Source of the DNA: Phytopythium helicoides | Lineage: Eukaryota > Oomycota > Peronosporomycetes > Pythiales > Pythiaceae | DNA length: 64,000 bases | Direction: 5' to 3' | Assembly: GCA_024867545.1 (NCBI GenBank) | Contig: JANFNE010000008.1 | Location: forward strand, 62,001-126,000 | Shown here: in pieces, positions 6,842-48,907 of the stretch | How the letters are laid out: each line of letters starts with the position of its first letter | Numbering within the stretch: the stretch's first letter is position 1 | Program-made: the position numbers and the translations under genes | Notes under the pieces: model-generated | Told to the model about the DNA's origin: nothing | The model's input: only the letters and a program-made list of their open reading frames with translations | Database searches by the model: none

Positions 6842-6969
6842 CAAAACCAGATTCAGCTCCATTCACACCTGACCGCCACGCTCACGAAAGCTTCGTGAAC
6901 ACCTCTATCTGCATATATAAATCGAGTCCACAAGCCGTGGTCAAGACTGCGATCATTCACTACTATCAC

Positions 6970-7905
6970 CTAACCCATGGCCTTCGCGATGGCCGCAAAC
7001 ACCTTCTCTGGGTCCTCCAAGTGAGGGTAGTGACCGCACTCGTCCTCCATCGACACCGTCGCATGCGGAACGACGCTCGTGATCCACTCGCCTTCCTTGT
7101 CGGCGTCCGGGTAGTCGGGGTCCTTGCGTCCAAGGAATGCCACCACAGCCACTTCCGGCGCCAGCTTCGCAACCGCTGACTCGACGCCGTCCTTGCGCGC
7201 ATTCATGAAGTACCGCGTGTTGGTGATGCCACGTCGATTGTCTTTCAGGTGCTTGCGCAAAATCTCCATCTCGCTGTCCAGGTCGCTTGGCTGATGCACC
7301 GGATACAGTGAGCGGTAGTACCACGTCCATACGCCGTTTCCCCACAGCGAGTTGAAGAGCACCGGCGCCACGACCCGGAACACGGCCGCCACCATCGGAG
7401 CATCTCGAAGAACCGGACCAAGCAACACCAGACCTCGAATGTGGCCGCTCAGCGCCGACGCACTCGCATGAACGGCAGCGAGCACCATGGATCCGGCCGC
7501 CAACGAGTTGCCGAGCAGCACGAACCTCGTCGTCGGGTCCTCCGTGTGCAGCTCAGTCATGAGTTGCGTGACGTCAGCAGCGACCGACTCGGGACTGAAG
7601 GTCGGGTACGAGTGCGACTTGTCGTCGATGGTAGCCTCCTCGAACCGTCCCGTCGAGTCTCCGAAGCCGCGCAGGTCTCCGAGCAGCACGCGCCAGCCGA
7701 GGCGGTCGTGCAGCAGCGGCGCGAGCAGGCGGAACTGTCGGCGCGTGTCGCCGATGCCCGGCAGGCAGATGGCGACGGTGGCTCCCGCCGTGGGTGAGTG
7801 TGGCCGCGAGTCCTCGAAGAAGACGGTGGCGTCGCTGGTACGCGAGACGCGCAGCAGGTAGTCGCTCGACAGCGGGAAGACGCGCGGGACGGAAGGCGAC
7901 GGCAT
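6970..7905 (-). CDS. H1: alpha/beta hydrolase (L type)
   Basis: An intronless 311-residue protein starting at the ATG at 7905; the frame is open one codon pair further to a TTG, which I do not use. The fold is read from PGIGDTRRQF (oxyanion region), the RGFGDSTG turn, the nucleophile elbow GNSLAAG with Ser134, the probable acid Asp262 in GRKDPDYPD, and His292 in ECGHYPHLEDP. The elbow has Ala where the canonical G-x-S-x-G motif has its last Gly. Such proteins are soluble esterases, lipases or related hydrolases; the substrate is unknown. No signal peptide is seen. It is the leftmost copy, lies 3' of B1 on the same strand, and is convergent with the PRP4-like gene. Confidence 0.88.
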   Translation of the reverse strand: MPSPSVPRVFPLSSDYLLRVSRTSDATVFFEDSRPHSPTAGATVAICLPGIGDTRRQFRLLAPLLHDRLGWRVLLGDLRGFGDSTGRFEEATIDDKSHSYPTFSPESVAADVTQLMTELHTEDPTTRFVLLGNSLAAGSMVLAAVHASASALSGHIRGLVLLGPVLRDAPMVAAVFRVVAPVLFNSLWGNGVWTWYYRSLYPVHQPSDLDSEMEILRKHLKDNRRGITNTRYFMNARKDGVESAVAKLAPEVAVVAFLGRKDPDYPDADKEGEWITSVVPHATVSMEDECGHYPHLEDPEKVFAAIAKAMG

Positions 7906-8496
7906 GGCCAAGACGCAGGCGGAGACGCAGGCAGACGTGCGAGGTCCGCGGAGAGTTGGGCAGTGAGCCTAGCGGACGAGCGCCGCGAGCGTCATGGGCG
8001 TCGCCAGCCGACGAGCGAGGCAGCAGGCGAGGTGCATGATGATGGCGGAGGCGCGCGGCATGATCGGATGGAGCACGTAACGGACGCGGGGTCGGATACG
8101 TGTGGCAAAAGCGAAGCCGACATGGGTACACTGCACTGTCCAGACGAGACGAGCCGAGATTGCTGTGCTGCTTCCCGAGCGAGTTGTGGTGAGCCTTCGC
8201 TTCCTTCCGAGACCAGAGCTGTGCTGCCGCGCGTGAGCTCTCGCGTGATGTGGCGGTAGACGTGGGTGAGTTGACGACGAAAGCATGAGGAGACGATGAA
8301 AAGCGGCTAAAGGATGTGTTTCTTGATCGGAGCTTAGGGAAGCGCTAGCTAACAATAATGGCGAGTGCGCTGCAAAGAGCTCGTCGACTGGCTGGCTGGG
8401 TACGCAGTCGATGACGGGGAGCGAGCGGAGACCGCACTGTGCGTGCGTTGCCATGACGAGGCACTCGATAGATAGATAAATACATATCACGCTGAC
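7906..8496 (-). promoter_or_regulatory. B1-H1 spacer: B 3' flank and H leader with uORF
   Basis: 590 bp between the B1 stop and the H1 start. The part nearest H1 carries a short upstream ORF at 8061-7969 (30 codons, starting MPRASAIIM, ending TAG), about 65 bp before the H1 ATG. The same uORF precedes H2 and H3 but not H4 or H5. The B-proximal half carries another open frame beginning MATHAQCGL that recurs, with frameshifts, in every spacer; I treat it as non-coding. Confidence 0.5.
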
Positions 8497-11400
8497 CTAG
8501 CGGAAGCGAGACGCCTTGCCGGTATCACTCGCGTCGCGGAGAGCCTGGATGCGCTTCAGGTTCGCCTCACGCTGCGACTGGAAGCGCAAGCTCTCGCTGA
8601 ACGCGAGAGCGCGCTGTGGGGGCCTCAGTGGGGCGGTCGAGGGTTTCTTGCTGCAGCTGATGCTGCTCGGGATGGTTCGGGCGGTGGAGGTGGTTCGGGT
8701 GGTGGAGATGGAGGCATGACGCGTTGCTCGCTGCGAGTTCATCTTCAGCTGCTGCGCTGCGCGAGCGCGGCGTTCTTTCGCGAGCATCCGTCCCGCTTGG
8801 TATTGCTGCGACTCGCCGTACTTAATATATCGCGAGTCGGCGGCGGGCGGTATCCAGGTTGGCCGATGGCGCTCACCTCGAGCTCGAGCAGTGGCCTTGA
8901 CCTTCTTGCTGCTGCTCGTGACAGTCGGCGCGGTGATAGCCGGCGATATGGTCGATGTCGTGGTCACTACCTCAGGCGTCGAGGCTGCGACAGCGGTCGG
9001 GTCGTCATCGCTATCCGGATTGGATGCGGGCTTAGTGCTCCACGTCACGGTGAGCATCCTTTCAAGCTGGGAGAGTTCGCCAGCGATGTCATCGTAGCTC
9101 TTGATGCCTTCCTCACTCGCCGGTGTAGTATCGAGCGTCACGGGCGTCTCAGGCGTCACCGACGTCAATGTTATCTCGAGCGCGTCAGCAGTAGCTGTTG
9201 TCTCCTCGGGAACTACGATGTCATCGATAGCAGTGGGGTCTTCGGTAGCTGTGAGCTCGTCTGCAGCGATGAGCTCGTCGGCAGCTGTGGTCGTGTTAGC
9301 AGAGGCATCGCTACTGGAACTCTCGACACCGGATGTACCATCGGGAGACGCTCCACCAGCGCAGTCGACACAAGCATCGGTACTTGTCGGCACGACACGG
9401 CGGCGAGCCAGGATGGCATCGGCAGCGCCTTTCTCGAAGATCTCAGCAAGGGCCGGTACGGACCGCTCGGCTTGTGTCGGGAGAGTATGCTTGGCGATCG
9501 GCGTGGCGCTACAATACCCACTCAACCGACTCAGATACACGGCGGCGACACGGCGCTTGTTCTCGTACTCCAATGCCGTAGTGGTTGTACATGGAGAGCT
9601 CTGGTATTCGTCACTGCGTTGATGGTCCGTGATACGCTCAGGATCGGGACGTGCTTGCTGCGCGGCTCGCTCAGGACCGGTCGAATCACACCTGCGACTG
9701 CTGCTGACATTGTCTTGAGTCTTCCCACTGCTGCTACGGTCGTCGTCGTCGTCGTCGTCGTCATCGTCGTCCGCCTCCAGTCGTGACCAAGGATCTGCTC
9801 TCGACGTTGTAATGAGAACGTCGCATGAACTGAGAAGGTCGTGGCTGGATGCGTCGGTCTCTGCTGTCGTAATGAGGACGCAGAGATCCGGCTGGGCGGT
9901 CGTCGCTTGGACGGCAGGAACTACTACCGAAGCAGCAGTAGCGGTAGTGGTTGACTGGATGGCAGCACAACTCGTTGAATCTTGGTTCGCAATATGATTG
10001 TATGCGGTCTCGAGAGTCAGGTCGTTCGTCGCAGGAAGGGTGATGATATCCATGTGAGTCGTCGTCGTTTCCACTTCCACTTCTTCTTGAGTGTCGGCAC
10101 CTTCTCCAGCTTCGTCGGCGTCTTTCTCGTCATCGTGGTCAATGTTTCCCTCGACGAAGTGAAGATATCCATCATCCGTAATGCCAACAGGTACCAATGG
10201 CTCCTCCGATGCGAGGTTGTTGCTGTCCGTTGAGCTAATGTGGCTGCAGTTGGTGATGTCGTCGCAGTTGGTCGATGCTACGCTGGGACTGGAACTGCTC
10301 CGACCTTCCTCGTCGTCGTCGTGATTGTTGTGCTCTTCCTGTTGCTCTTCCTCCTCCTCCTCCTCATACACGAGGCGCGGAACGCCGCTGTCGCTGTCGA
10401 AGTCACTGTCGATGTGGCTGTGGCTGTGGCTGTGGCTGTGGCTGTGGCTGTGGCTGCGGCTGTGGCTGTCACCCCAGAATCCACTCGAACAGTTCAGACC
10501 CAGCAGGCTGCGAAACAACCCGATCGTGTTCGTGTCGTTGTCGACGTCGTAGTATCCATGGGATTCGAAGAAGGCGACGCCGTCGTCCACCTCTCCACTG
10601 TAGATGGCTCGCAGGTGTCTGTCGAACGGCGTCTTGCTGACTGACGGGACATCAGATAACGCGGTGGCATCCAGGCTGGTACTGGAAGACTTGGCGCGGG
10701 TACTGTCGCTGGCCCAGAACTCGACTTCAGACTCGACCTCGACTTTGACCACGGTCCCAGTCACGTTCGCATCCATCGGCACCGTATCGAGGTAACTGTG
10801 CTCCTCGAAGAAGGCGAGTCCATCGACGTCCTCGCCCGCGTACAGCGCACGAAGATGCTGGTCGAAGAGCGACTCGTTCGTGAGGGAAGGTTCTGGGTCG
10901 CTCGTGCACGATCCATCGCTGTTGCTGTTGCTGTTGCTGTTGTTGATGTTGATGTTGAAGCTGAAGCCATCGGTGTTCAGGATATCGTAGTAGTCGGACA
11001 AGGCATCGCGGTTGTCCTTGACGTCATCGGCGGTGGCGGCACTCTCAAAGTCGCACTCTTCTTCCTCACTGTCGATCCGCAAGTCGCCGTCGATACCGAC
11101 ATCACTCTCGCTGTTCTCCGTCTCGGACGCGTCGTCAAGCTGCTCCATCTTGTCTTCCTGTGCGAGCTCCCACTGCTCGAGGGCCTCACGAGCCGACTCG
11201 AGCCGCTTGGTCGCCGCAGCGAGCTCGCGCTGGCGCTCTCTCTCGTGCTGCCAGTCCACGTCTCGCTCGAGGTCGTGTCGGGTCGTGATCGCCGCCTTGT
11301 TCTTGTCGGCCGCGAGCACGGCGGCCATGGTGGTCGGGAAGCGCGGCGTGGCGGCCATCACGGCCTCCATCTCGCTCCTGCGCTCAATCTCTCGCTGGGT

Positions 11401-11547
11401 CTCGAGCGCGCGCTCGTGTCGGTGCTTGGCGTCCATCGCGTCCAGCTGGCGCTCGGCGGCCTGGAGGGCGTCGGTCGAGGCGGTCGAGGCAGTCGAGGCG
11501 GTCGAAGAGGTCGAATAGGTCGAGGAGGTCATGGCGCGGACGGACAT
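8497..11547 (-). CDS. B1: large acidic low-complexity protein of unknown function (L type)
   Basis: Intronless, 1,016 residues from the ATG at 11547, the first ATG shared by all nine copies; the frame is open about 63 codons further but has no ATG there. I do not recognise the family. Order of features: Ser/Thr/Ala-rich N-terminus; charged, probably helical residues 25-150 (REIERRSEME, WQHERERQREL); acidic stretch; two copies of a repeat of about 30 residues, FDxHLRAxYxGE..DGxAFFExHxYxD, near 224-253 and 305-335; a His-Ser dipeptide run; a Glu/Asp-rich region with a weaker third repeat (DGYLHFVEG, near 457); a run of 11 Asp near 593; Thr/Ser/Ala-rich region; a conserved basic C-terminus with WIPPAADSRY, YGESQQYQAG and a final ASRFR. 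No signal peptide, membrane helix, RxLR or LFLAK-type effector motif was seen. Confidence 0.8.
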   Translation of the reverse strand: MSVRAMTSSTYSTSSTASTASTASTDALQAAERQLDAMDAKHRHERALETQREIERRSEMEAVMAATPRFPTTMAAVLAADKNKAAITTRHDLERDVDWQHERERQRELAAATKRLESAREALEQWELAQEDKMEQLDDASETENSESDVGIDGDLRIDSEEEECDFESAATADDVKDNRDALSDYYDILNTDGFSFNININNSNSNSNSDGSCTSDPEPSLTNESLFDQHLRALYAGEDVDGLAFFEEHSYLDTVPMDANVTGTVVKVEVESEVEFWASDSTRAKSSSTSLDATALSDVPSVSKTPFDRHLRAIYSGEVDDGVAFFESHGYYDVDNDTNTIGLFRSLLGLNCSSGFWGDSHSRSHSHSHSHSHSHSHIDSDFDSDSGVPRLVYEEEEEEEQQEEHNNHDDDEEGRSSSSPSVASTNCDDITNCSHISSTDSNNLASEEPLVPVGITDDGYLHFVEGNIDHDDEKDADEAGEGADTQEEVEVETTTTHMDIITLPATNDLTLETAYNHIANQDSTSCAAIQSTTTATAASVVVPAVQATTAQPDLCVLITTAETDASSHDLLSSCDVLITTSRADPWSRLEADDDDDDDDDDDRSSSGKTQDNVSSSRRCDSTGPERAAQQARPDPERITDHQRSDEYQSSPCTTTTALEYENKRRVAAVYLSRLSGYCSATPIAKHTLPTQAERSVPALAEIFEKGAADAILARRRVVPTSTDACVDCAGGASPDGTSGVESSSSDASANTTTAADELIAADELTATEDPTAIDDIVVPEETTATADALEITLTSVTPETPVTLDTTPASEEGIKSYDDIAGELSQLERMLTVTWSTKPASNPDSDDDPTAVAASTPEVVTTTSTISPAITAPTVTSSSKKVKATARARGERHRPTWIPPAADSRYIKYGESQQYQAGRMLAKERRARAAQQLKMNSQRATRHASISTTRTTSTARTIPSSISCSKKPSTAPLRPPQRALAFSESLRFQSQREANLKRIQALRDASDTGKASRFR

Positions 11548-12437
11548 GGCGAGGGCGGTCGTGGCGGACGGAGGCGGGCGGCGGGCGCTCGGTGGGCTGG
11601 CGGACGGAGGCGGGCGGTTCGTCTCGAAGGCGGCGGTGGCGCTCGAGAACTGGGCGGCGCCAGGCGCCAGCGGCGGTCGCGAGCCATCACGGGCGGTCGA
11701 CGCCCCATGATTGACGGAGAAGGCCGAGCGAGGCAAGGAAGTGGACGGAAAGGCGAGCGCGCGCGCGACCGCCGCACCGCGACCGCCGGAAGTATAGGTT
11801 CAAGGATCCGCTCGGTCGATGGCTTCAACTTGCGAACACATACAGACGGCAAGTCAGGTTACACTGTAGGTGATCATGGCGTGGGGCGGGGTGGCTTAGC
11901 TGTGTGGGTCACATGAAGGACCTGGCGTCCGCCGAGCACGCGCGAGGTGGGAGCACTCGGCAATATGAACGGACCCATGAGGGTTTCCCTTAAGCTCTAG
12001 CTTGAGGTGTCGTAGTTGAGCGTGAGTTCTTGTGGTTGGATGCATGCTTGGTCGATTGGATCAGTGCAGAAAGTGGCAAAGAGAGAAATATTGCCGTGCC
12101 TTTGAGGACGCCGTCGACCGTGACGATGCCAATTTCCATTTCTAGTGGCGTCGACTGCTACTAGTCATCAGCGCCGCAATTTACTCTGGCTGGTATGGCT
12201 CACCAGTAGAAAAAGAGAGAGAGAGAGAAAGGTCAGAAAGGTGTCGTCCTTGAGTTGCTGTGGATCCAGCAAACGCAGCGCATTTGCCTCAGGAAGTTTC
12301 AATAAAAGTCAAAACCAGATTCAGCTCCATTCACACCTGACCGCCACGCTCACAAAAGCTTCGTGAACACCTCTATCTGCATATATAAATCGAGTCCACA
12401 AGCCGTGGTCAAGACTGCGATCATTCACTACTATCAC
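11548..12437 (-). other. H2-B1 spacer: H2 3' flank and B1 5' region
   Basis: The full-length form of the unit's 5' B region, with the H 3' flank still attached. It contains the counterpart of the MEIDIVTVD ORF seen in the right half, but here a short deletion and substitutions break the frame (an ATG near 12140 reads MEIGIVTVD and then diverges and stops). A GA dinucleotide run lies at 12214-12227. No gene is supported. Confidence 0.55.
12214..12227. repeat. (GA)n microsatellite
   Basis: Seven consecutive GA dinucleotides lie in the H2 3' flank. The right-half copies have a T-rich run at the equivalent place instead. Confidence 0.8.
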
Positions 12438-13373
12438 CTAACCCATGGCCTTCGCGATGGCCGCAAACACCTTCTCTGGGTCCTCCAAGTGAGGGTAGTG
12501 ACCGCACTCGTCCTCCATCGACACCGTCGCATGCGGAACGACGCTCGTGATCCACTCGCCTTCCTTGTCGGCATTCGGGTAGTCGGGGTCCTTGCGTCCA
12601 AGGAATGCCACCACAGCCACTTCCGGCGCCAGCTTCGCAACCGCTGACTCGACGCCGTCCTTGCGCGCATTCATGAAGTACCGCGTGTTGGTGATGCCAC
12701 GTCGATTGTCTTTCAGGTGCTTGCGCAAAATCTCCATCTCGCTGTCCAGGTCGCTTGGCTGATGCACCGGATACAGTGAGCGGTAATACCACGACCATAC
12801 GCCGTTTCCCCACAGCGAGTTGAAGAGCACCGGCGCCACGACCCGGAACACGGCCGCCACCATCGGAGCATCTCGAAGAACCGGACCAAGCAATACCAGA
12901 CCTCGAATGTGGCCGCTCAGCGCCGACGCGCTCGCATGAACGGCAGCGAGCACCATGGATCCGGCCGCCAACGAGTTGCCGAGCAGCACGAACCTCGTCG
13001 TCGGGTCCTCCGTGTGCAGCTCAGTCATGAGTTGCGTGACGTCAGCAGCGACCGACTCGGGACTGAAGGTCGGGTATGAGTGCGACTTGTCGTCGATGGT
13101 AGCCTCCTCGAACCGTCCCGTCGAGTCTCCGAAGCCGCGCAGGTCTCCGAGCAGCACGCGCCAGCCGAGGCGGTCGTGCAGCAGCGGCGCGAGCAGGCGG
13201 AACTGTCGGCGCGTGTCGCCGATGCCCGGCAGGCAGATGGCGACGGTGGCTCCCGCCGTGGGTGAGTGTGGCCGCGAGTCCTCGAAGAAGACGGTGGCGT
13301 CGCTGGTACGCGAGACGCGCAGCAGGTAGTCGCTCGACAGCGGGAAGACGCGCGGGACGGAAGGCGACGGCAT
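12438..13373 (-). CDS. H2: alpha/beta hydrolase (L type)
   Basis: 311 residues from the ATG at 13373. It is nearly identical to H1; the translated copies differ at only two places that I see (GVWSWYY for GVWTWYY, and PDYPNAD for PDYPDAD). The catalytic Ser134, Asp262 and His292 contexts are intact, so it should be functional if H1 is. It lies between B1 and B2 on the same strand. Its leader is about 33 bp shorter than that of H1, the segment just upstream of the uORF start being deleted. Confidence 0.88.
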   Translation of the reverse strand: MPSPSVPRVFPLSSDYLLRVSRTSDATVFFEDSRPHSPTAGATVAICLPGIGDTRRQFRLLAPLLHDRLGWRVLLGDLRGFGDSTGRFEEATIDDKSHSYPTFSPESVAADVTQLMTELHTEDPTTRFVLLGNSLAAGSMVLAAVHASASALSGHIRGLVLLGPVLRDAPMVAAVFRVVAPVLFNSLWGNGVWSWYYRSLYPVHQPSDLDSEMEILRKHLKDNRRGITNTRYFMNARKDGVESAVAKLAPEVAVVAFLGRKDPDYPNADKEGEWITSVVPHATVSMEDECGHYPHLEDPEKVFAAIAKAMG

Positions 13374-13932
13374 GGCCAAGACGCAGGCGGAGACGCAGGC
13401 AGACGTGCGAGGTCCGCGGAGAGTTGGGCAGTGAGGCTAGCGGACGAGCGCCGCGAGCGTCATGGGCGTCGCCAGCCGACGAGCGAGGCAGCAGGCGAGG
13501 TGCATGATGATGGCGGAGGCGCGCGGCATGATACGTGTGGCAAAAGCGAAGCCGACATGGGTACACTGCACTGTCCAGACGAGACGAGCCGAGATTGCTG
13601 TGCTGCTTCCCGAGCGAGTTGGGGTGAGCCTTCGCTTCCTTCCGAGACCAGAGCTGTGCTGCCGCGCGTGAGCTCTCGCGTGTTGTGGCGGTAGACGTGG
13701 GTGAGTTGACGACGAAAGCATGAGGAGACGATGAAAAGCGGCTAAAGGATGTGTTTCTTGATCGGGAGCTTAGGGAAGCGCTAGCTATCAATAATAGTGA
13801 GTGCGCTGCAAAGAGCTCGTCGACTGGCTGGCTGGGTTCGCAGTCGATGACGGGGAGCGAGCGGAGACCGCACTGTGCGTGCGTTGCCATGACGAGGCAC
13901 TCGATAGATAGATAAATACATATCACGCTGAC
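13374..13932 (-). promoter_or_regulatory. B2-H2 spacer: H leader with uORF
   Basis: The L-type uORF (MPRASAIIM, 30 codons) is intact at 13529-13437, but the sequence immediately upstream lacks about 33 bp present in the H1 leader: CGGCATGAT joins directly to ACGTGTGGC. The remainder is B2 3' flank. Confidence 0.5.
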
Positions 13933-16320
13933 CTAGCGGAAGCGAGACGCCTTGCCGGTATCACTCGCGTCGCGGAGAGCCTGGATGCGCTTCAGGTTCG
14001 CCTCACGCTGCGACTGGAAGCGCAAGCTCTCGTTGAACGCGAGAGCGCGCTGTGGGGGCCCCAGTGGGGCGGTCGAGGGTTTCTTGCTGCAGCTGATGCT
14101 GCTCGGGATCGTTCTGGCAGTGGAGGTGCCGGCATGACGCGTTGGTGGCTGCGAGTTCTTCAGCTGCTGCGCTGCGCGAGCGCGGCGTTCTTTCGCGAGC
14201 ATCCGTCCCGCTTGGTATTGCTGCGACTCGCCGTACTTCATATATCGCGAGTCGGCGGCGGGCGGTATCCAGGTTGGCCGATGGCGCTCACCTCGAGCTC
14301 GAGCAGTGGCCTTGACCTTCTTGCTGCTGCTCGTGACAGTCGGCGCGGTGATAGCCGGCGATGTGGTCGATGTCGTGGTCACTACCTCAGGCGTCGAGGC
14401 TGCGACAGCGGTCGGGTCGTCATCGCAATCCGGATTGGATGCGGGCTTAGTGCTCCACGTCACGGTGAGCATCCTTTCAAGCTGGGAGAGTTCACCAGCG
14501 ATGTCATCGTAGCTCTTGATGCCTTCCTCACTCGTCGGTGTAGTATCGACCGTCACGGGCGTCTCAGGCATCACCGGTGTCAATGTTATCTCGAGGGCAT
14601 CAGCAGTAGCTGTTGTCTCCTCGGCAACTACGATGTCATCGATAGCTGTGGGGTCTTCGGTATCTGTGAGCTCGTCTGCAGCGATGAGCTCGTCGGCAGC
14701 TGTGGTCGAGTTAGCAGAGGTATTGGTATTGGAACTCTCGACACCGGATGTACCATCGGGAGACGCTCCACCACCGCAGTCGACAGAAGCATCGGTACTT
14801 GTCGGCACGACACGGCGGCGAGCCAGGATGGCATCGGCAGCGCCTTTCTCGAAGATCTCAGCAAGGGCCGGTACGGACCGCTCGGCTTGTGTCGGGAGAG
14901 TATGCTTGGCGATCGGCGTGGCGCTACAATACCCACTCAACCGACTCAGATACACGGCGGCGACACGGCGCTTGTTCTCGTACTCCAATGCCGTAGTGGT
15001 TGTACATGGAGAGCTCTGGTATTCGTCACTGCGTTGATGGTCCGTGATACGCTCAGGATCGGGACGTGCTTGCTGCGCGGCTCGCTCAGGACCGGTCGAA
15101 TCACACCTGCGACTGCTGCTGACATTGTCTTGAGTCTTCCCACTGCTGCTACGGTCGTCGTCGTCGTCGTCGTCGTCATCGTCGTCCGCCTCCAGTCGTG
15201 ACCAAGGATCTGCTCTCGACGTTGTAATGAGAACGTCGCATGAACTGAGAAGGTCGTGGCTGGATGCGTCGGTCTCTGCTGTCGTAATGAGGACGCAGAG
15301 ATCCGGCTGGGCGGTCGTCGCTTGGACGGCAGGAACTACTACCGAAGCAGCAGTAGCGGTAGTGGTTGACTGGATGGCAGCACAACTCGTTGAATCTTGG
15401 TTCGCAATATGATCACGCGCGGTCTCGAGAGTCAGGTCGTTCGTCGCAGGAAGGGTGATGATATCCATGTGAGTCGTCGTCGTTTCCACTTCCACTGCTT
15501 CTTGAGTGTCGGCACCTTCTCCAGCTTCGTCGGCGTCTTTCTCGTCATCGTGGTCAATGTTTCCCTCGACGAAGTGAAGATATCCATCATCCGTAATGCC
15601 AACAGGTACCAATGGCTCCTCCGATGCGAGGTTGTTGCTGTCCGTTGAGCTAATGTGGCTGCAGTTGGTGATGTCGTCGCAGTTGGTCGATGCTACGCTG
15701 GGACTGGAACTGCCGCGACCTTCCTTCTCGTCGTCGTGATTGTTGTGCTCCTCCTGTTGCTCTTCCTCCTCCTCCTCCTCATACACGAGGCGCGGAACAC
15801 CGCTGTCGCTGTCGAGGTCACTGTTGCAATCACTGTGGCTGTGGCTGTGGCTGTGGCTGTGGCTGTGGCTGTCACCCCAGAATCCACCCGAACCGTTCAG
15901 ACCCAGCAGGCTGCGAAACAACCCGATCGTGTTCGTGTCGTCGTCGACGTCGTAGTATCCATGGGATTCGAAGAAGGCGACGCCGTCGTCCACCTCTCCG
16001 CTGTAGATGGCTCGCAGGTGTCGGTCGAATGGCGTCTTGTCGACTGATGGGACATCAGATGGCGCGGTGGCATCCAGGCTGGTACTGGAAGACTTGGCGC
16101 GGGTACTGTCGCTGGCCCAGAACTCGACTTCAGACTCGACCTCGACTTTGACCACGGTCCCAGTCACGTTCGCATCCATCGGCACCGTATCGAGGTAACT
16201 GTGCTCCTCGAAGAAGGCGAGTCCATCGACGTCCTCGCCTGCGTACAGCGCACGAAGATGCTGGTCGAAGAGCGACTCGTTCGTGAGGGAAGGTTCTGGG
16301 TCGCTCGTGCACGATCCATC

Positions 16321-16351
<31 letters not shown>

Positions 16352-16956
16352 TTGATGTTGAAGCTGAAGCTGACGCCATCGGTGTTCAGGATATCGTAGT
16401 AGTCGGACAAGGCATCGCGGTTGTCCTTGACGTCATCGGCGGTGGCGGCACTCTCAAAGTCGCACTCTTCTTCCTCACTGTCGATCCGCAAGTCGCCGTC
16501 GATACCGACATCACTCTCGCTGTTCTCCGTCTCGGACGCGTCGTCAAGCTGCTCCATCTTGTCTTCCTGTGCGAGCTCCCACTGCTCGAGGGCCTCACGA
16601 GCCGACTCGAGCCGCTTGGTCGCCGCAGCGAGCTCGCGCTGGCGCTCTCTCTCGTGCTGCCAGTCCACGTCTCGCTCGAGGTCGTGTCGGGTCGTGATCG
16701 CCGCCTTGTTCTTGTCGGCCGCGAGCACGTCGGCCATGGTGGTCGGGAAGCGCGGCGTGGCGGCCATCACGGCCTCCATCTCGCTCCTGCGCTCAATCTC
16801 TCGCTGGGTCTCGAGCGCGCGCTCGTGTCGGTGCTTGGCGTCCATCGCGTCCAGCTGGCGCTCGGCGGCCTGGAGGGCGTCGGTCGAGGCGGTCGAGGCA
16901 GTCGAGGCGGTCGAAGAGGTCGAAGAAGTCGAGGAGGTCATGGTGCGGACGGTCAT
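13933..16956 (-). CDS. B2: large acidic low-complexity protein (L type)
   Basis: 1,007 residues from the shared ATG at 16956, same layout as B1. Differences from B1 include MTVRTM for MSVRAM at the start, a longer Asn-Ser run before the first FDxHLRA repeat, SHSHSH followed by DCNSDLDSD instead of HIDSDFDSD, and a shorter segment near the C-terminus (NSQPPTRHAG). No frameshift or stop was seen. It is the last left-half copy that still has an H gene on its 3' side. Confidence 0.8.
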
Positions 16957-19009: not shown

Positions 19010-19042
<33 letters not shown>

Positions 19043-20170: not shown

Positions 20171-20201
<31 letters not shown>

Positions 20202-36415: not shown

Positions 36416-36454
<39 letters not shown>

Positions 36455-37740: not shown

Positions 37741-38344
37741 AAAGTCCCCGCTCCAGCCAGGTGAACGTAATTTATCTATCGATTGCCTCGTCATGGCAAC
37801 GCACAGTGCGGCTCCGCTCGCTCTCCGTCATCGACTGCGTACCCAGCCAGCCAGTCGACGAGCTCTTTGCAGCGCACTCACTATTAGCTAGCGCTTCCCT
37901 AAGCTCCCGATCAATAAACACATCCTTTAGCCGCTTTTCCTCGTCCACTCACTCACATCTACCATCACAACACGCAAAAACTCACGCGCTGCAGCACAGC
38001 TCTGGTCTCGGAAGGAAGGCTCACCACAACTCGCTCGGGACGCAACGCTCTCGGCTCGTCTCGACAGTGCAGTGTACCCATGTCCGCTTCGCTTTTGCCA
38101 CACGTATCCGACACCGCGGCCGTCACGTGCTCCATCCGATCATGCCGCGCGCTTCCGCCGTCATCATGCACCCTCGCCTCTCCTCGTCTCGCCTGCTGCC
38201 TCGCTCGTCGGCTGGCGACGCCCATGACGCTCGCGGCGCTCGTCCGCTAGGCTCACTGCCCGACTCTCCGCGGACCTCGCACGCCGCCTCCCCACCCGCC
38301 CTCCCGCCTGCGTCTCCGCCTGCGTCTCCGCCTGCGTCTTGGCC
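37741..38344 (+). other. B7-H4 spacer (R type)
   Basis: B 3' flank with AATAAA at 37913-37918, a plausible polyadenylation signal (the left copies have AAGAAA at this place), followed by an H leader. In the R-type leader the uORF starting MPRASAVIM near 38142 carries a 13-bp insertion, so it does not stop at the usual TAG and continues out of frame over the H4 start. Confidence 0.5.
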
Positions 38345-39307: not shown

Positions 39308-40183
39308 GTAGTAGTAGTGAATGCAGCCTTGAACACGGTTTGTGGACTCGATTTATATATATGCAGACTGAGCTGTCCACGAAGCTTTAGTGAGCGTGGC
39401 GGTCAGGTGTGAATGGAGCTGAATCTGGTTTTGACTTTGATTGAGACTTCCTGAGGTGAAAGCACTATGTTAGCTGAGTCCACAGCAACTCAAGGACGAC
39501 ACCTTTCTAACCTTTCTTTTTTCTTTTTTACTGGTGAGCGACACCAGAGTAAATTGCGGCGCTGATGACTAGTAGCAGTCGACGCCACTAGAAATGGAAA
39601 TTGACATCGTCACGGTCGACGGCGTCCTCAAAGAAAGGCACGGCAATATTTCTCGCTTTGACTCTCCCTGCACTGATCCAATCGACCAAGCATGCATCGA
39701 ACCACAAGAACTCACGCTCAACTTCGACACCTCAAGCTCGAGCTTAAGGGAAACCCTCATGAGTCCGTTCGTATTGCCGAGTGCTCCCATCCATCTCGCG
39801 CGTGTGTTGCAGTGCTCGGCTCGGCGGACGCCAGGTCCTGCATGTGGCCCACACACCTGAGCCACACCGCACCACGCCATGATCACCTCCCTGACTTGCC
39901 GTCTGGATGCTCGCAAGTTGAAGCCATCGACCGACGGATCCTTGAACCTATACTTCCGGCGGTCGCGGTGCGGCGCGAGCGCTCGCCTTTCCCTCCACTT
40001 GCCTCGGCCTTCTCCGTCAATCATGGGGCGTCGACCGCCCGTGATGGCTCGCGACCGCCGCTGGCGCCTGGCGCCGCCCAGTTCTCGAGCGCCACCGCCG
40101 CCTTCGAGACGCCCCGCCCGCCCCGCGCCGCCAGCCCACCAAGCGACCGCCACCCGCCTCCGTCCGCCACGACCGCCCTCGCC
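39308..40183 (+). other. H4-B8 spacer with a conserved 88-codon ORF
   Basis: H 3' flank and B8 5' region. An ORF at 39594-39860 (MEIDIVTVDG, 88 codons) is also present before B9 (45071-45337) and, shorter, before B7. It has no recognisable domain. The B8 frame itself is open back to an ATG at 39692, which would add 164 residues. I prefer 40184 because the extension is interrupted in the left copies. Confidence 0.45.
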
Positions 40184-41904
40184 ATGACCGTCCGCGCCAT
40201 GACCTCTTCGACCTCTTCGACCTCTTCGACCTCTTGGACTGCCTCGACCGACGCCCTCCAGGCCGCCAAGCGCCAGCTGGACGCGATGGACGCCAAGCAC
40301 CGACACGAGCGCGCGCTCGAGACCCAGCGAGAGCTCGAGCGCAGGAGCGAGATGGCGGCCGTGTTGGCCGTCACGCCCCGCTTCCCGACCACCATGGCCG
40401 CCGTGCTCGCGTCCGACAAGAACAAGGCGGCGCTCACGACACGCCACGACCTCGAGCGAGACGTGGACTGGCAGCACGAGAGAGAGCGCCAGCGCGAGCT
40501 CGCTGCGGCGACGAAGCGGCTCGAGTCGGCTCGCGAGGCCCTCGAGCAGTGGGAGTTGGCGCAGGAAGACAAGATGGAGCAGCTTGACGACGCGTCCGAG
40601 ACGGAGAACAGCGAGAGTGACCTCGGTATCGTCGGCGACTTGAGGAGCGACAGCGAGGAAGAAGAGCGCGACTTTGAGAGTGCCGCCACCACCGATGACA
40701 ACAACGACAACAGCGATGCCTTCTCCGACTACTACGATATCCTGAACAACGAATGCGAAAGTGACGGCTTCAGCATCAACAACAGCTTCAGCGATGGATC
40801 ATCCACGAGCGACCCAGCGCCTTCCCTCACGAACGAGTCGCTCTTCGATCAGCATTTGCGTGCACTGTACGCGGGCGAGGACGTCGATGGACTCGCCTTC
40901 TTCGACGAGCACAGTTACCTCGATACGGCGCCGATGGATACGAACGTGACTGGGACCGTGGTCAAAGTCGAGGCCGAGTCTGAAGTCGAGTTCTGGGTCA
41001 GCGACGGTACCAGCGCCAAGTCTTCCACTACCAGCCTGGATGCTACCGCGCCATCTGATGTCCCGCCAGTCGGCGAGACACCGTTCGACAGACACCTGCG
41101 AGCCATCTACAGTGGAGAGGTGGACGACGGCCTCACCTTCTTCGAATCGCATGGATACTACGACATCGACAACGACAACGACACGAACACGGTCGGGTTG
41201 TTTCGCAGCCTGCTGGGTCTGAACGCTTCGGGTGGATTCTGGGGTGACAGCCACAGCCACAGCCACAGCCACAGTGACCGTGACCGTGACAGCGGCCGTC
41301 CACGCCTCGACTATGAGGAGGAGGAAGAGCAAAAGGAGGAGCAGAACGAGGAGGAGGAGGAAGGCCGCAGCAATTCCAGTCCCAGCGTAGCAGCGACAAA
41401 CTGCGACGACAACTGCAACTGCAGCCACATTAGCTCAACGGACAGCAGCAACCTCGTATCGGAGGAGCCATTGGTGTTTGTTGGCATTACGGATGCTGGA
41501 TCTCTTCACTTCGTCGAGGGAAACATTGACCACGATGACGAGAAAGACGCCGACGAAGCTGGAGAAGGTGCCGACACTCAAGAAGCAGTGGAAGTGGAAA
41601 CGACGACGCCTCACATGGATATCATCACCCTTCCTGCGACGAACGACCTGACTCTCGAGACCGCATACAATCATATTGCGAACCAAGATTCGACGAGCTG
41701 TGCTGCCATCCAGTCAACCACTATCGCTGCTGCAGCTTCTCTACTGGTTCCTGCCGTCCAAGCGACGACCGCCCAGCCGGATCTCTGCGTCCTCATTACG
41801 ACAGCAGAGGCCGGCGCATCCAGCCACGATCTTCTCAGTTCACGCGACGTTCTCATTACAACGTCGAGAGCAGATCCTGGGTCACGACTGGAGGCGGACG
41901 ACGA

Positions 41905-41941
<37 letters not shown>

Positions 41942-43225
41942 CGTAGCAGCAGTGCGAAGACTCAAGACGATGTCAGCAGTAGTCGCAGGCGTGATTCGAC
42001 CGACCCTGAGCGAGCCGCGCAGCAAGCACGTCACGATCCTGAGCGTATCTCGGACCAACAACGCGGTGACGAATGCCAGAACTCTCCACGCACAACCATC
42101 ACGGGATTGGAATACGAGAACAAGCGCCGTGTCGCCGCCGTGTATCTGAGTCGGTTGACTGGGTTTTGTAGCGCCACGCCGATCGACAAGCGTGCTCTCG
42201 CGACACAAGCCGAGCGCTCCGTACCGGCCCTCGCTGAGATCTTTGAGAAAGGCGCTGCCGATGCCATCTTATCCCGCCGCCGTGTCGTGCCGACATCTAC
42301 CGATGCTTCTATCTACTTCGCTGGTGGAGCTTCTGCCGATGAGATTTCCGGTGTCGAGAGCTCCAGTATCGAGACCTCTGCTGACGAGATCACAGCTGTC
42401 GAGGAGATCACAGCTGCCGACGAGATCACAGCTACCGATGAGATCACAGCTACTGACGAGATCGCGTCCGCTGAAGAGATTGTCGCTACCAGTACACCTG
42501 TAACGAAATCTGAGATCGAGATAGACCTGATTGCTGCTGATGCGCTCGAGACGAAAGTGACGCCGGTGACGCCGGTGACGCCTGAGACGCCTATGACACC
42601 CGTGACGCTTGAGGCAAACCCGTTGAGTGAGGAAGGAGTCAAGAGCTACGAAGACATCGCTGACGAACTCTCTCAGCTCCAAAGGATGCTCACCGTGACG
42701 TGGAGCACTGAGCCCGCATCCAATCCGGATAGCGATAACGATTCGACCGCTGTCACAGCCTCGATGTCTGAGGTAGTGACCACGACATCGACCACATCGC
42801 CGACTATCACCGCGCCGACTATCACCGCGCCGACTGTCACTAGTAGCAGCAAGAAGGTCAGGGCCACTGCTCGTGGTGAGCGCCGTCGCCCAACCTGGAT
42901 ACCGCCCGCCGCCGACTCGCGATATATGAAGTACGGCGAGTCGCAGCAATACCAAGCGGGACGGATGCTCGCGAAAGAACGCCGCGCTCGCGCAGAGCAG
43001 CAGCTGAAGACGAACTCGCAGCGAGCAACGCGTCATGCCGCCACCTCCACCGCCAGAACTATCCCGAGCAGCATCAGCAGCACGAAAAAACCCTCGACCG
43101 CCCCACAGCGCGCTCTCGCGTTCAACGAGAGCTTGCGCTTCCAGTCGCAGCGTGAGGCGAACCTGAAGCGCATCCAGGCTCTCCGCGACGCGAGTGATAC
43201 CGGCAAAGCGTCTCGCTTCCGCTAG
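40184..43225 (+). CDS. B8: large acidic low-complexity protein (R type, intact)
   Basis: 1,013 residues from the shared ATG; an upstream in-frame ATG at 39692 is the alternative. It is the only uninterrupted R-type B gene here and so the reference for that subfamily. Both repeats (FDQHLRALYAGE, FDRHLRAIYSGE) are present, the second followed by DGLTFFESHGYYD. The His-Ser run is short and leads into SDRDRDSGRPRLDYEEEEE. There is a long Asp run, then a Thr/Glu-rich block of EITA-type repeats (ADEITA, TDEITA) absent from L types. The basic C-terminus is conserved. Confidence 0.8.
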
Positions 43226-43817
43226 AAAGTCCCCGCTCCAGCCAGGTGAACGTAATTTATCTATCGATTGCCTCGTCATGGCAACGCACAGTGCGGCTCC
43301 GCTCGCTCTCCGTCATCGACTGCGTACCCAGCCAGCCAGTCGACGAGCTCTTTGCAGCGCACTCACTATTAGCTAGCGCTTCCCTAAGCTCCCGATCAAT
43401 AAACACATCCTTTAGCCGCTTTTCCTCGTCCACTCACTCACGTCTACCATCACAACACGCGAGAGCTCACGCGCTGCAGCACAGCTCTGGTCTCGGAAGG
43501 AAGGCTCACCACAACTCGCTCGGGACGCAACGCTCTCGGCTCGTCTCGACAGTGCAGTGTACCCATGTCCGCTTCGCTTTTGCCACACGTATCCGACACC
43601 GCGGCCGTCACGTGCTCCATCCGATCATGCCGCGCGCTTCCGCCGTCATCATGCACCCTCGCCTCTCCTCGTCTCGCCTGCTGCCTCGCTCGTCGGCTGG
43701 CGACGCCCATGACGCTCGCGGCGCTCGTCCGCTAGGCTCACTGCCCGACTCTCCGCGGACCTCGCACGCCGCCTCCCCACCCGCGCTCCCGCCTGCGTCT
43801 CCGCCTGCGTCTTGGCC
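43226..43817 (+). other. B8-H5 spacer (R type)
   Basis: Closely matches the B7-H4 spacer, including AATAAA (at about 43398) and the frame-shifted uORF. No separate gene is supported. Confidence 0.5.
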
Positions 43818-44780
43818 ATGCCATCGACTTCGCCGTCGCCGTCGCCTTCGGTCCCGCGCGTCTTCCCGCTGTCGAGCGACTACCTGCTGCGCGTATCACG
43901 TACCAGCGACGCCACCGTCTTCTTCGAGGACTCGCGGCCCCACTCACCCAACTCGCCCACGACAGGAGCCACCGTCGCCATCTGCCTGCCGGGTATCGGC
44001 GACACGCGCCGACAGTTCCGCCTGCTCGCGCCGCTGCTACACGACCGCCTCGGCTGGCGCGTGCTGCTCGGAGACCTGCGCGGCTTCGGAGACTCGACGG
44101 GACGGTTCGAGGAGGCTACCATCAACGACAAGTCGGACTCGTACCCGACCTTCAGTCCCGAGTCGGTCGCCGCCGACGTCACGCAGCTCATGACCGAGCT
44201 GCACACGGAGGACCCGACGACGAGGTTCGTGCTGCTCGGCAACTCGTTGGCGGCCGGATCCATGGTGCTCGCTGCCGTTCATGCGAGGGCGTCGGCGCTA
44301 AACGGTCACATTCGAGGTCTGGTGTTGCTGGGTCCGGTTCTTCGAGATGCTCCGATGGTGGCGGCCGTGTTCCGGGTCGTGGCGCCGGTGCTCTTCAACT
44401 CGCTGTGGGGAAACGGCATATGGACGTGGTACTACCGATCACTGTATCCGGTGCGCCAGCCGAGCGACCTGGACAGCGAGATCGAGATCTTGCGCAAGCA
44501 CCTGAAAGACAATCGACGCGGCATCACCAACACGCGATACTTGATGAATGCGCGCAAGGACGCCGTCGAGTCAGCTGTTGCGAAGCTGGCGCCGGAAGTG
44601 GCTGTGGTGGCGTTCCTGGGACGCAAGGACCCAGACTACCCGGACGCCGACAAGGAAGGCGAGTGGATCAAGAGTGTCGTTGCGCATGCGACGGTGTCGA
44701 TGGAGGACGACTGCGGTCACTATCCTCACTTGGAGGACCCAGAGAAGGTGTTTGCGGCCATCGCGAAGGCCATGGGGTAG
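43818..44780 (+). CDS. H5: alpha/beta hydrolase (R type)
   Basis: 320 residues from the ATG at 43818, almost identical to H4. The one amino-acid difference I see is TRYLMNARK for TRYFMNARK. The catalytic motifs are intact. It is the rightmost hydrolase, followed on the same strand by the broken B9. Confidence 0.88.
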   Translation: MPSTSPSPSPSVPRVFPLSSDYLLRVSRTSDATVFFEDSRPHSPNSPTTGATVAICLPGIGDTRRQFRLLAPLLHDRLGWRVLLGDLRGFGDSTGRFEEATINDKSDSYPTFSPESVAADVTQLMTELHTEDPTTRFVLLGNSLAAGSMVLAAVHARASALNGHIRGLVLLGPVLRDAPMVAAVFRVVAPVLFNSLWGNGIWTWYYRSLYPVRQPSDLDSEIEILRKHLKDNRRGITNTRYLMNARKDAVESAVAKLAPEVAVVAFLGRKDPDYPDADKEGEWIKSVVAHATVSMEDDCGHYPHLEDPEKVFAAIAKAMG

Positions 44781-45660
44781 GTAGTAGTAGTGAATGCAGC
44801 CTTGAACACGGTTTGTGGACTCGATTTGTATATATATATGCAGAGTGAGCTGTCCACGAAGCTTTAGTGAGCGTGGCGGTCAGGTGTGAATGGAGCTGAA
44901 TCTGGTTTTGGCTTTGATTGAGACTTCCTGAGGTGAAAGCACTACGTTAGCTGGGTCCACAGCAACTCAAGGATGACACCTTTCTAACCTTTCTTTTTTC
45001 TTTTTTACTGGTGAGCGACACCAGAGTAAATTGCGGCGCTGATGACTAGTAGCAGTCGACGCCACTAGAAATGGAAATTGACATCGTCACGGTCGACGGC
45101 GTCCTCAAAGAAAGGCACGGCAATATTTCTCGCCTTGACTCCCCCTGCACTGATCCAATCGACCAAGCATGCATCGAACCACAAGAACTCACGCTCAACT
45201 TCGACACCTCAAGCTCGAGCTTAAGGGAAACCCTCATGAGTCCGTTCGTATTGCCGAGTGCTCCCATCCATCTCGCGCGTGTGTTGCAGTGCTCGGCTCG
45301 GCGGACGCCAGGTCCTGCATGTGGCCCACACACCTGAGCCACACCGCACCACGCCATGATCACCTCCCTGACTTGCCGTCTGGATGCTCGCAAGTTGAAG
45401 CCATCGACCGACGGATCCTTGAACCTATACTTCCGGCGGTCGCGGTGCGGCGCGAGCGCTCGCCTTTCCCTCCACTTGCCTCGGCCTTCTCCGTCAATCA
45501 TGGGGCGTCGACCGCCCGTGATGGCTCGCGACCGCCGCTGGCGCCTGGCGCCGCCCAGTTCTCGAGCGCCACCGCCGCCTTCGAGACGCCCCGCCCGCCC
45601 CGCGCCGCCAGCCCACCAAGCGACCGCCACCCGCCTCCGTCCGCCACGACCGCCCTCGCC
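44781..45660 (+). other. H5-B9 spacer with a conserved 88-codon ORF
   Basis: Same content as the H4-B8 spacer, including the MEIDIVTVDG frame at 45071-45337. Confidence 0.45.
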
Positions 45661-48482
45661 ATGACCGTCCGCGCCATGACCTCTTCGACCTCTTCGACCT
45701 CTTCGACCTCTTGGACTGCCTCGACCGACGCCCTCCAGGCCGCCAAGCGCCAGCTGGACGCGATGGACGCCAAGCACCGACACGAGCGCGCGCTCGAGAC
45801 CCAGCGAGAGCTCGAGCGCAGGAGCGAGATGGCGGCCGTGTTGGCCGTCACGCCCCGCTTCCCGACCACCATGGCCGCCGTGCTCGCGTCCGACAAGAAC
45901 AAGGCGGCGCTCACGACACGCCACGACCTCGAGCGAGACGTGGACTGGCAGCACGAGAGAGAGCGCCAGCGCGAGCTCGCTGCGGCGACGAAGCGGCTCG
46001 AGTCGGCTCGCGAGGCCCTCGAGCAGTGGGAGTTGGCGCAGGAAGACAAGATGGAGCAGCTTGACGACGCGTCCGAGACGGAGAACAGCGAGAGTGACCT
46101 CGGTATCGTCGGCGACTTGAGGAGCGACAGCGAGGAAGAAGAGCGCGACTTTGAGAGTGCCGCCACCACCGATGACAACAACGACAACAGCGATGCCTTC
46201 TCCGACTACTACGATATCCTGAACAACGAATGCGAAAGTGACGGCTTCAGCATCAACAACAGCTTCAGCGATGGATCATCCACGAGCGACCCAGCGCCTT
46301 CCCTCACGAACGAGTCGCTCTTCGATCAGCATTTGCGTGCACTGTACGCGGGCGAGGACGTCGATGGACTCGCCTTCTTCGACGAGCACAGTTACCTCGA
46401 TACGGCGCCGATGGATACGAACGTGACTGGGACCGTGGTCAAAGTCGAGGTCGAGTCTGAAGTCGAGTTCTGGGTCAGCGACGGTACCAGCGCCAAGTCT
46501 TCCACTACCAGCCTGGATGCTACCGCGCCATCTGATGTCCCGCCAGTCGGCGAGACACCGTTCGACAGACACCTGCGAGCCATCTACAGTGGAGAGGTGG
46601 ACGACGGCCTCACCTTCTTCGAATCGCATGGATACTACGACATCGACAACGACACGAACACGGTCGGGTTGTTTCGCAGCCTGCTGGGTCTGAACGCTTC
46701 GGGTGGATTCTGGGGTGACAGCCACAGCCACAGCCACAGCCACAGCCAGCCACAGCCAGTGACCGTGACCGTGACCGTGACAGCGGCCGTCCACGCCTCG
46801 GCTATGAGGAGGAGGAAGAGCAAAAGGAGGAGCAGAACGAGGAGGAGGAGGAGGAAGGCCGCAGCAATTCCAGTCCCAGCGTAGCAGCGACAAACTGCGA
46901 CGACAACTGCAACTACAGCCACACTCTCGAGACCGCGTGTGATCGTGTTGCGAACCAAACTTCGACGAGTTGTGCTGCCATCCGGTCAACCACTACCGCT
47001 GCTGCAGCTTCTTCTGTACTGGTTCCTGCCGTCCAAGCGACGACCGCCCAGCCGGCTCTCTGCGTCCTCATTACGACAGCAGAAGCCGACGCATCCAGCC
47101 ATGATCTTCTCAGTTCATGCGACGTTCTCATTACAACGTCGAGAGCAGATCCTTGGTCAGGACTGGAGGCGGACGACGACGACGACGACAGCAGTGGGAA
47201 GACTCAAGACGATGTCAGCAGCAGTCGCAGGCGTGATTCGACCGACCCTGAGCGAGCCGTGCAGCAAGCACGTCACGATCCTGAGCGTATCTCGGACCAA
47301 CAACGCGGTGACGAATGCCAGAACTCTCCACGCACAACCATCACGGGATTGGAATACGAGAACAAGCGCCGTGTCGCCGCCGTGTATCTGAGTCGGTTGA
47401 CTGGGTTTTGTAGCGCCACGCCGATCGACAAGCGTGCTCTCGCGACACAAGCCGAGCGCTCCGTACCGGCCCTCGCTGAGATCTTTGAGAAAGGCGCTGC
47501 CGATGCCATCTTATCCCGCCGCCGTGTCGTGCCGACATCTACCGATGCTCCTATCTACTTCGCTGGTGGAGCTTCTGCCGATGAGATTTCCGGTGTCGAG
47601 AGCTCCAGTATCGAGACCTCTGCTGACGAGATCTCTGCTGACGAGATCACAGCTGTCGAGGAGATCACAGCTACCGACGAGCTCATAGCTACCGAGGAGA
47701 CCACAGCTACTGACGAGATCGCGTCCGCTGAAGAGATTGTCGTCACCAGTACACCTGTAACGACATCTGAGATCGAGATAGACCTGATTGCTGCTGATGC
47801 GCTCGAGACGAAAGTGACCCCGGTGACGCCGGAGACGCCTGAGACGCCTATGACACCCGTGACGCTTGAGGCAAACCCGTTGAGTGAGGAAGGAGTCAAG
47901 AGCTACGAAGACATCGCTGACGAACTCTCTCAGCTCCAAAGGATGCTCACCGTGACGTGGAGCACTGAGCCCGCATCCAATCCGGATAGCGATGACGATT
48001 CGACCGCTGTCACAGCCTCGATGTCTGAGGTAGTGACCACGACATCGACCACATCGCCGACTATCACCGCGCCGACTATCACCGCGCCGACTGTCACGAG
48101 TAGCAGCAAGAAGGTCAGGGCCACTGCTCGTGGTGAGCGCCGTCGCCCAACCTGGATACCGCCCGCCGCCGACTCGCGATATATGAAGTACGGCGAGTCG
48201 CAGCAATACCAAGCGGGACGGATGCTCGCGAAAGAACGCCGCGCTCGCGCAGAGCAGCAGCTGAAGACGAACTCGCAGCGAGCAACGCGTCATGCCGCCA
48301 CCTCCACCGCCAGAACTATCCCGAGCAGCATCAGCAGCAACAAAAAACCCTCGACCGCCCCACAGCGCGCGCTCGCGTTCAACGAGAGCTTGCGCTTCCA
48401 GTCGCAGCGTGAGGCGAACCTGAAGCGCATCCAGGCTCTCCGCGACGCGAGTGATACCGGCAAGGCGTCTCGCTTCCGCTAG
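45661..48482 (+). pseudogene. B9: frameshifted and internally deleted B gene (R type)
   Basis: R-type sequence matches B8 to the His-Ser run. At 46738-46760 the hexamer repeat has slipped (CACAGCCAGCCACAGCCAG), moving the downstream coding sequence into another frame; the original frame stops at 46884 after 407 codons. Further on, at about 46924, roughly 225 bp present in B8 (about 41428-41652) is missing, joining CAGCCAC to TCTCGAGACC. The Asp run is cut to about five residues. From 46785 to 48482 the B frame is open to the normal ASRFR end. It is the terminal unit of the array; the 3' flank matches other units to about 48650. Confidence 0.8.
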
Positions 48483-48907
48483 AAAGTCCCCGCTCCAGCC
48501 AGGTCAACGTAATTTATCTATCGATTGCCTCGTCATGGCAACGCACAGTGCGGCTCCGCCCGCTCTCCGTCATCGACTGCGTACCCAGCCAGCCAGTCGA
48601 CGAGCTCTTTGTCACTAGTAGCTAGCGCTTCTCGATTAATAAGAATTCCTTTTGCTACTTTGCTTTGGTTGGTCTGTTGCTTGCTTTATTGGAGCCCCGC
48701 GATCGTAGAGTAGTTTGTTCGCCCCGAATCGACGTCTAAGTTCTGATGATCATTTTGCCTCTATGAAATTGGTCTACCTTCAAGTACTGGTGCGTTGGAT
48801 CCGAGCAGTTATTCGCGGATCACCACGCTGAAGATATACAATATCCACAGCACTACGGAGACCATCGACAACTGTTGTGTTGGCTCATACGATTCGTATT
48901 GTGCAGC
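48483..48907. other. Right edge of the array and intergenic DNA
   Basis: Up to about 48650 this is a degraded version of the B 3' flank; beyond that the sequence is unique. It lies between B9 (+) and membrin (-), convergent. No gene was seen. Confidence 0.5.

What the first reader, a model, noticed from the sequence alone, without database searches (positions are those of the whole stretch)
6842..48650. A 42-kb array co-amplifying an alpha/beta hydrolase with a large protein of unknown family
Five H and nine B genes, seven B copies intact, alternate in an array that makes up two thirds of the window, between single-copy housekeeping genes. Two structurally unrelated genes kept together through repeated duplication suggest selection on dosage or on the pair. 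B has no domain I can name. This is the best candidate here for an undescribed system.
Basis: partly seen in the sequence, partly recalled or inferred. Interest (0 to 1): 0.85.

Follow-up and report, generated by a model that had tools for sequence, protein, structure and literature searches.

The report
Tandem array of orphan coiled-coil genes
A 42-kb stretch of this oomycete chromosome is a partly inverted tandem array of a fast-evolving protein-coding gene (B) without known relatives, in which an ordinary esterase-like gene (H) was copied along in some units and lost from others, so it looks more like an expanding orphan gene family than a two-gene system.

Summary
The array is real (window 6828-48631): five intact H and nine B genes, seven intact, in an inverted half joined to a direct half. 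B is protein-coding: 108 of 108 pairwise indels are multiples of 3, against 18 of 87 in spacers, with moderate purifying selection between divergent types. It is a ~1,004-residue acidic, mostly disordered protein with conserved helical ends, no Pfam family and no relative found in two protein-database searches. H is an ordinary alpha/beta-hydrolase conserved in oomycetes. H and B duplicated as a unit (similar dS), so co-amplification is confirmed. Selection on the pair is not supported: four B-to-B spacers here lost H, among them those of the most similar copies (B3-B5); a nine-copy B array on another contig has no H; at a third B locus H is a relic. Against this, H-bearing units also duplicated recently, and the array's H copies are the only intact ones found and are strongly constrained. 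Best reading: an orphan B family expanding by unequal exchange and gene conversion, with H a linked passenger. B also carries a module shared with one PH-domain protein, suggesting a chimeric origin. B's molecular function was not shown.

The parts
6828..48631 (.). Whole array (limits of repeat homology)
   Evidence: BLASTN of both edges against the core of the array
6970..7905 (-). H1, alpha/beta-hydrolase, intact
8497..11547 (-). B1, intact
12438..13373 (-). H2, intact
11945..13529 (-). H2-bearing segment whose counterpart is absent from the four B-to-B spacers
   Evidence: CGCGCG shared by both flanks at the B3-B2 junction (read from the sequences printed)
13933..16956 (-). B2, intact
17786..20806 (-). 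B3, intact; no H between B3 and B2
21579..24593 (-). B4, intact; one substitution from B3 in the aligned N, middle and C parts
25366..28410 (-). B5, intact
29183..32221 (-). B6, intact; last copy of the inverted half
32587..32591 (.). Inversion junction: upstream region of B6 (minus) joined to B-downstream sequence leading to H3 (plus); approximate
32832..33767 (+). H3, intact
34606..37740 (+). B7, frame-disrupted; mosaic: ends like B8, middle like B4 (gene conversion)
38345..39307 (+). H4, intact (start read from the upstream sequence printed)
40184..43225 (+). B8, intact (open frame extends upstream to 39692)
43818..44780 (+). H5, intact (start read from the upstream sequence printed)
45661..48482 (+). 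B9, frame-disrupted, with an internal deletion of 222 nt relative to B8

Best explanation
B is a protein-coding gene family, probably lineage-specific, spread by ordinary recombination. A B-H-B arrangement was duplicated as a B-H unit, partly inverted, and homogenised by gene conversion (seen in B7). In one unit H was then deleted, apparently at short microhomology, and the H-less B unit multiplied to give B3-B6. H is a constrained esterase that hitchhikes; B is what the arrays of this genome share. Inferred, not shown: B is a long acidic intracellular scaffold- or linker-type protein whose conserved helical ends dimerise or dock and whose disordered middle changes fast; its copies are kept for B dosage or B sequence diversity.
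For: Unit duplication: H dS between halves 0.099-0.148, B8 versus B1 or B4 dS 0.148-0.155 in the middle, 0.110-0.122 in the N-domain. H loss: the four B-to-B spacers keep both flanks but lack the 1.58-kb H segment. B without H: C64 array, nine copies, six open from the conserved start; at C74 an intact B preceded by an H relic, 60.8 bits against at most 29.2 in 200 block-shuffled controls. Coding: 108 of 108 pairwise indels in frame in B, 18 of 87 in spacers; in 7 of 7 comparisons amino-acid changes were fewer than in each of 500 simulations. Conversion: B7 is closer to B4 than to B8 in 10 of 11 blocks from column 750 to 2400 and closer to B8 in most others. Protein form: AlphaFold2 mean pLDDT 39.9, confident only in parts of helices near both ends; pI 4.4, polar N-terminus.
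Against: H is not freely lost: all five array copies are intact with dN/dS 0.06-0.18, more constrained than B, and the only other full-length H found (C16) has a broken frame. H-bearing units duplicated recently too (H4/H5 dS 0.013; B8/B9 98.5%). B-H adjacency is also seen outside this array (C74 relic), which could be read as an old partnership. Between close B copies dN/dS is often 0.5-0.8 and in a few C64/C74 comparisons about 1.1 (few changes), so constraint on B is shown mainly between divergent types. The scaffold role rests on composition and a low-confidence model. No expression data.
Confidence: 0.6

Rival explanations
1. The pair is selected together: B and H act in one pathway or complex, and the array raises the dosage of both.
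For: Co-duplication with similar dS; recent duplication of H-bearing units; five of five H intact under strong constraint; B-H adjacency also at C74.
Against: Four B-to-B spacers lost H; C64 array without H; H decayed at C74; H relatives occur in named oomycetes for which no B relative was found in the same database.
Confidence: 0.18
2. H dosage is what is selected; B is only the repetitive substrate that drives unequal exchange.
For: H more constrained than B; intact H found only in the array; Phytophthora pseudosyringae has two different H proteins with consecutive locus numbers and the same listed contig length, so H duplicates elsewhere.
Against: B is itself coding and constrained; a B array exists without H; an H-less unit multiplied here.
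Confidence: 0.12
3. B is a selfish or conflict-driven family (for example acting at spore or gamete formation) whose arrays expand for their own sake.
For: No relative found, loci on C79, C64 and C74 plus decayed pieces, a middle region that is largely unalignable between types, a module shared with an unrelated gene, gene conversion.
Against: No functional data; these are features of any fast-evolving tandem family.
Confidence: 0.05
4. Assembly artefact: falsely expanded or inverted repeats.
For: B3 and B4 almost identical; reads not available.
Against: Most copies differ by private indels and are 90-99% identical in DNA; the array lies inside a 1.21-Mb contig; a separate array exists on C64.
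Confidence: 0.03

Closest known systems
M96 mating-specific gene family of Phytophthora (PMC5999078, passages seen; Cvitanich et al. 2006 seen only as a reference there)
   Same: Protein-coding family in clusters of tandem repeats, variable copy number between species, some copies with internal stops, concerted evolution considered.
   Different: M96 proteins have signal peptides, are high in Gly, Ser and Tyr and have a median mature size of 271 aa; B4 is 1,004 aa, acidic, with a polar N-terminus. No second gene in the unit is mentioned in the passages seen.
Avr3a segmental duplication of Phytophthora sojae (PMC2661136, abstract and passages seen)
   Same: Four copies of a 10.8-kb unit in which one gene is accompanied by four others.
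   Different: An RXLR effector locus. B4 has no signal-like N-terminus; RXLR motifs were not searched. Here part of the array is inverted and lacks the second gene.
Alpha/beta-hydrolase superfamily (Pfam Abhydrolase_6) for H
   Same: Fold, Ser-Asp-His residues; relatives in Phytophthora, Nothophytophthora and Pythium at 44-57% identity.
   Different: Substrate unknown; the best structural matches are mostly bacterial esterases and other hydrolases, near 20% identity at the top.

Membership tests
Abhydrolase_6 (H) | Profile score above the curated cut-off | tested here: met
   62 bits against 26.3 for H1
Abhydrolase_6 (H) | Ser-Asp-His catalytic residues | tested here: met
   5 of 5 H copies; Ser in 34 of 35 aligned rows (one gap), Asp and His in 35 of 35
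Abhydrolase_6 (H) | Alpha/beta-hydrolase fold | tested here: met
   Model mean pLDDT 93.2, best PDB match E 7e-16
Abhydrolase_6 (H) | Hydrolase activity | not testable with these tools
   no assay
Protein-coding tandem gene family (B) | Reading frame preserved by selection | tested here: met
   In-frame indels 108 of 108 against 18 of 87; dN/dS 0.32-0.42 in the N- and C-domains between types; simulations 7 of 7. Close pairs show weaker constraint
Protein-coding tandem gene family (B) | Transcribed and translated | not testable with these tools
   no RNA or protein data
Any described protein family (B) | Match to a Pfam model above its cut-off | tested here: not met
   Zero families for two C79-type copies and the C74 copy; one sub-threshold hit, 17.8 against 27 bits, for a C64 copy
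M96 family | Short secreted Gly/Ser/Tyr-rich protein | tested here: not met
   B4: 1,004 aa; S 11.8, A 11.7, D 10.2, T 10.2, G 4.5, Y 1.7 percent; polar N-terminus. M96 sequences themselves were not compared
Co-selected two-gene system | Both genes always present together | tested here: not met
   B without H in four spacers here, in C64, and with only a relic at C74
Mobile element | Transposase or reverse-transcriptase domain, terminal repeats | tested here: inconclusive
   No such domain in B; terminal repeats were not searched for systematically

The most novel reading that the evidence does not exclude
B founds a new oomycete-lineage protein family whose arrays work as diversity generators: two conserved helical ends hold a disordered middle that exchanges modules (one shared with a PH-domain protein gene and doubled), shuffled by gene conversion across an inverted array, possibly under genetic conflict, with the H esterase as an old linked partner.
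Probability: 0.12. Interest if true: 0.7.

Novelty: new member of a known kind. Interest (0 to 1): 0.36.

Why it matters
It shows, in one stretch of sequence, how an apparently orphan coding family expands: composite-unit duplication, inversion, gene conversion, then loss of the companion gene and multiplication of the rest. It warns that physical co-amplification is not by itself evidence of functional coupling. The B family (at least 14 copies open from the conserved start in this genome, at three loci) is an undescribed target for functional work, as far as the searches here go.

Tried and rejected
Homology of B: a search with the whole B8 protein (the 7,989 candidates sharing most words were scored, none at E<=0.001; low-complexity words may have crowded that list) and with the conserved N-domain of the C74 copy (3,310 candidates, none at E<=10); PDB sequences (one hit, E 0.47, taken as chance; none with the profile at E<=10); viral contigs (30 pattern stretches, none confirmed) and prokaryote genomes (174 stretches, none confirmed), which are not real tests for an oomycete gene. 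The protein database admits only 0.55-1.75 times the query length, so short or split gene models would be missed.

Noncoding satellite reading of B: rejected by in-frame indels and constraint. The overlapping antisense open frames (for example 8716-9786 +) are regarded as by-products of composition; they were not tested for selection.

A trace of H in C64 spacers: one 29-bp match just upstream of the H start proved to lie in a short GC-rich repeat not collinear with the spacer; rejected.

A fold search with the B model was not run, since mean pLDDT was 39.9. Rfam and tRNA scans of the window were empty. Codon-position tests alone were weak (p 0.0055 to 0.74 over nine comparisons). Literature: looked for oomycete tandem or orphan families; nothing in the listings pointed to this family, and only two papers were opened. 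(a guess at the genus) did not settle the species. One search failed on a sign and was not repeated.
Full report
WHAT IS THERE. Repeat homology runs from 6828 to 48631. The minus-strand half reads, 5' to 3', B6, B5, B4, B3, B2, H2, B1, H1; the plus-strand half reads H3, B7, H4, B8, H5, B9. The halves meet head to head near 32.59 kb. The window is contig C79:62001-126000 of a 49.06-Mb, 100-contig assembly; C79 is 1.21 Mb long. Flanking genes carry DAGK_cat, protein-kinase and PIP5K domains. The named H relatives of highest score come from Phytophthora, Nothophytophthora and Pythium, so the genome is an oomycete's; the species was not determined.

H. All five copies are open, and the one scanned (H1) matches Abhydrolase_6; Ser, Asp and His are in place in all five. 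A 41-row alignment gave a confident model (pLDDT 93.2), whose best solved matches are bacterial esterases near 20% identity. Pairwise dN/dS among the five is 0.06-0.18 over ten pairs. Outside the array the genome search found one other full-length H-like sequence, at C16:381001-381917, as three pieces in different frames; its DNA is 85% identical from start to stop codon with a frame broken twice, and its flanks match only in one 62-bp stretch (76%) downstream. So the array carries the only intact H found.

B IS A GENE. Nine copies share start and stop motifs; seven are open between them. Among the seven intact coding regions 108 of 108 pairwise indels are multiples of three; in H-to-B and B-to-H spacers 10 of 40 and 8 of 47 are (pairwise counts are not independent events). 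In four pairs of a C79-type with a C64- or C74-type copy, the N-domain (147-149 codons) has dN/dS 0.37-0.42 and the C-domain (113-116 codons) 0.32-0.40; the middle is saturated or unalignable. Between close copies the ratio is higher, often 0.5-0.8 in the middle, and about 1.1 in three comparisons of C64 or C74 copies that rest on few changes. Observed amino-acid changes were below the minimum of 500 simulations in 7 of 7 comparisons; a simple test of codon positions was weak. B4 is 1,004 aa, pI 4.4, rich in S, A, D, T and E. AlphaFold2 on nine paralogues is confident only in parts of two N-terminal helices (20-65, 74-144) and two C-terminal ones (908-934, 966-1002); 817 of 1,004 residues are below 50.

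WHERE ELSE B OCCURS. Searches with a C79-type and a C64-type B protein show: a minus-strand array at C64:1000-42689, nine copies, of which I count six open from the conserved start to the stop (copies 2, 3, 6, 7, 8, 9), two frame-disrupted (1, 4) and one interrupted by open frames with reverse-transcriptase and BED-finger matches, the latter barely above its cut-off; one intact copy at C74:67152-69815 with further fragments at C74:64-66 kb and 118-121 kb; and decayed pieces at C79:164-166 and 223 kb and, more weakly, C79:297 and 307 kb and C11:469 kb. That is at least 14 open copies (7+6+1). Counts are lower bounds by the tool's own statement.

HISTORY OF THE PAIR. Between the halves H differs by dS 0.099-0.148 (six pairs), and B8 differs from B1 or B4 by 0.110-0.122 in the N-domain, 0.148-0.155 in the middle and 0.069 in the C-domain, as expected if the two genes were copied together. 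The four spacers B3-B2, B4-B3, B5-B4 and B6-B5 retain both flanks of the H segment but not the segment; at the B3-B2 junction both flanks share CGCGCG, and the other three spacers lack 54 bp more. Since both halves carry H, its absence here is best read as loss, followed by multiplication of the H-less unit: B3-B6 are 98.5-100% identical, B3-B5 99.3-100%, the closest in the array. H-bearing units are not much older: B8 and B9 are 98.5% identical and H4 and H5 differ by dS 0.013. At C74 a C79-type B end and its downstream spacer are followed after about 20 bp by a 146-bp H relic (68% identity; 60.8 bits against at most 29.2 in 200 shuffles of three-base blocks), then by the intact B, which with its upstream region is of C64 type. 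So a B-H-B order exists outside this array, and H died there. No H was found in C64. B7 is a mosaic: closer to B4 than to B8 in 10 of 11 blocks from alignment column 750 to 2400, closer to B8 on most blocks either side, which indicates gene conversion between the halves.

A CHIMERIC MIDDLE. Each C79-type B has two copies of a module of about 50-65 residues (FDxHLRAxYxGxxxDGLxFFxxH), one of them partial in B7. It was not found in C64- or C74-type copies; the only other match, among 19 of 19 candidates scored, is a 650-codon frame at C73:72758-74707 with a PH domain (33.1 against 25.1 bits). One module is 59-61% identical to it, the other 43-50%. Gain by B from the PH gene followed by doubling is the simplest reading, but loss from the other B types is not excluded.

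VERDICT. Co-amplification is confirmed; selection on the pair is not supported, though not excluded, because H is well kept where it remains and H-bearing units also duplicated recently. On checking that last point against I lowered the best explanation from 0.65 to 0.60 and raised the pair reading from 0.15 to 0.18. The closest precedents are tandem families such as M96 (PMC5999078, passages seen) and multi-gene repeated segments such as Avr3a (PMC2661136, abstract and passages seen). The role of B as a scaffold or linker is inference from composition and a weak model.

Noticed in passing
C64:18060-22721 (L054 and neighbours): A 1,553-codon frame whose tested part (907 aa) matches RVT_1 above cut-off and RT_RNaseH_2 just below it: a retrotransposon inserted in a B copy of the C64 array.
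   Followed up: partly
C64:43329-44414 (L039, L059): A 361-codon frame next to the C64 array; 322 aa tested give a weak, sub-threshold match to the Cas12f1-like TNB domain (18.8 against 26.3 bits), possibly a Fanzor-like relic (the name Fanzor is recalled).
   Followed up: no
C73:72758-74707 (L067): PH-domain protein, one copy found, sharing a module with the C79-type B proteins.
   Followed up: partly
C74:117216-118316 (L023): Sir2-family frame beside B fragments.
   Followed up: no
C16:381001-381917 (L006-L008): Frame-broken H-like sequence, 85% DNA identity limited to the coding region apart from a short downstream stretch.
   Followed up: yes
window 59283-62762: Open frame with a PIP5K domain and a weak, sub-threshold 7tm_2 match, like the GPCR-PIPK fusion of oomycetes (that name is recalled).
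   Followed up: no
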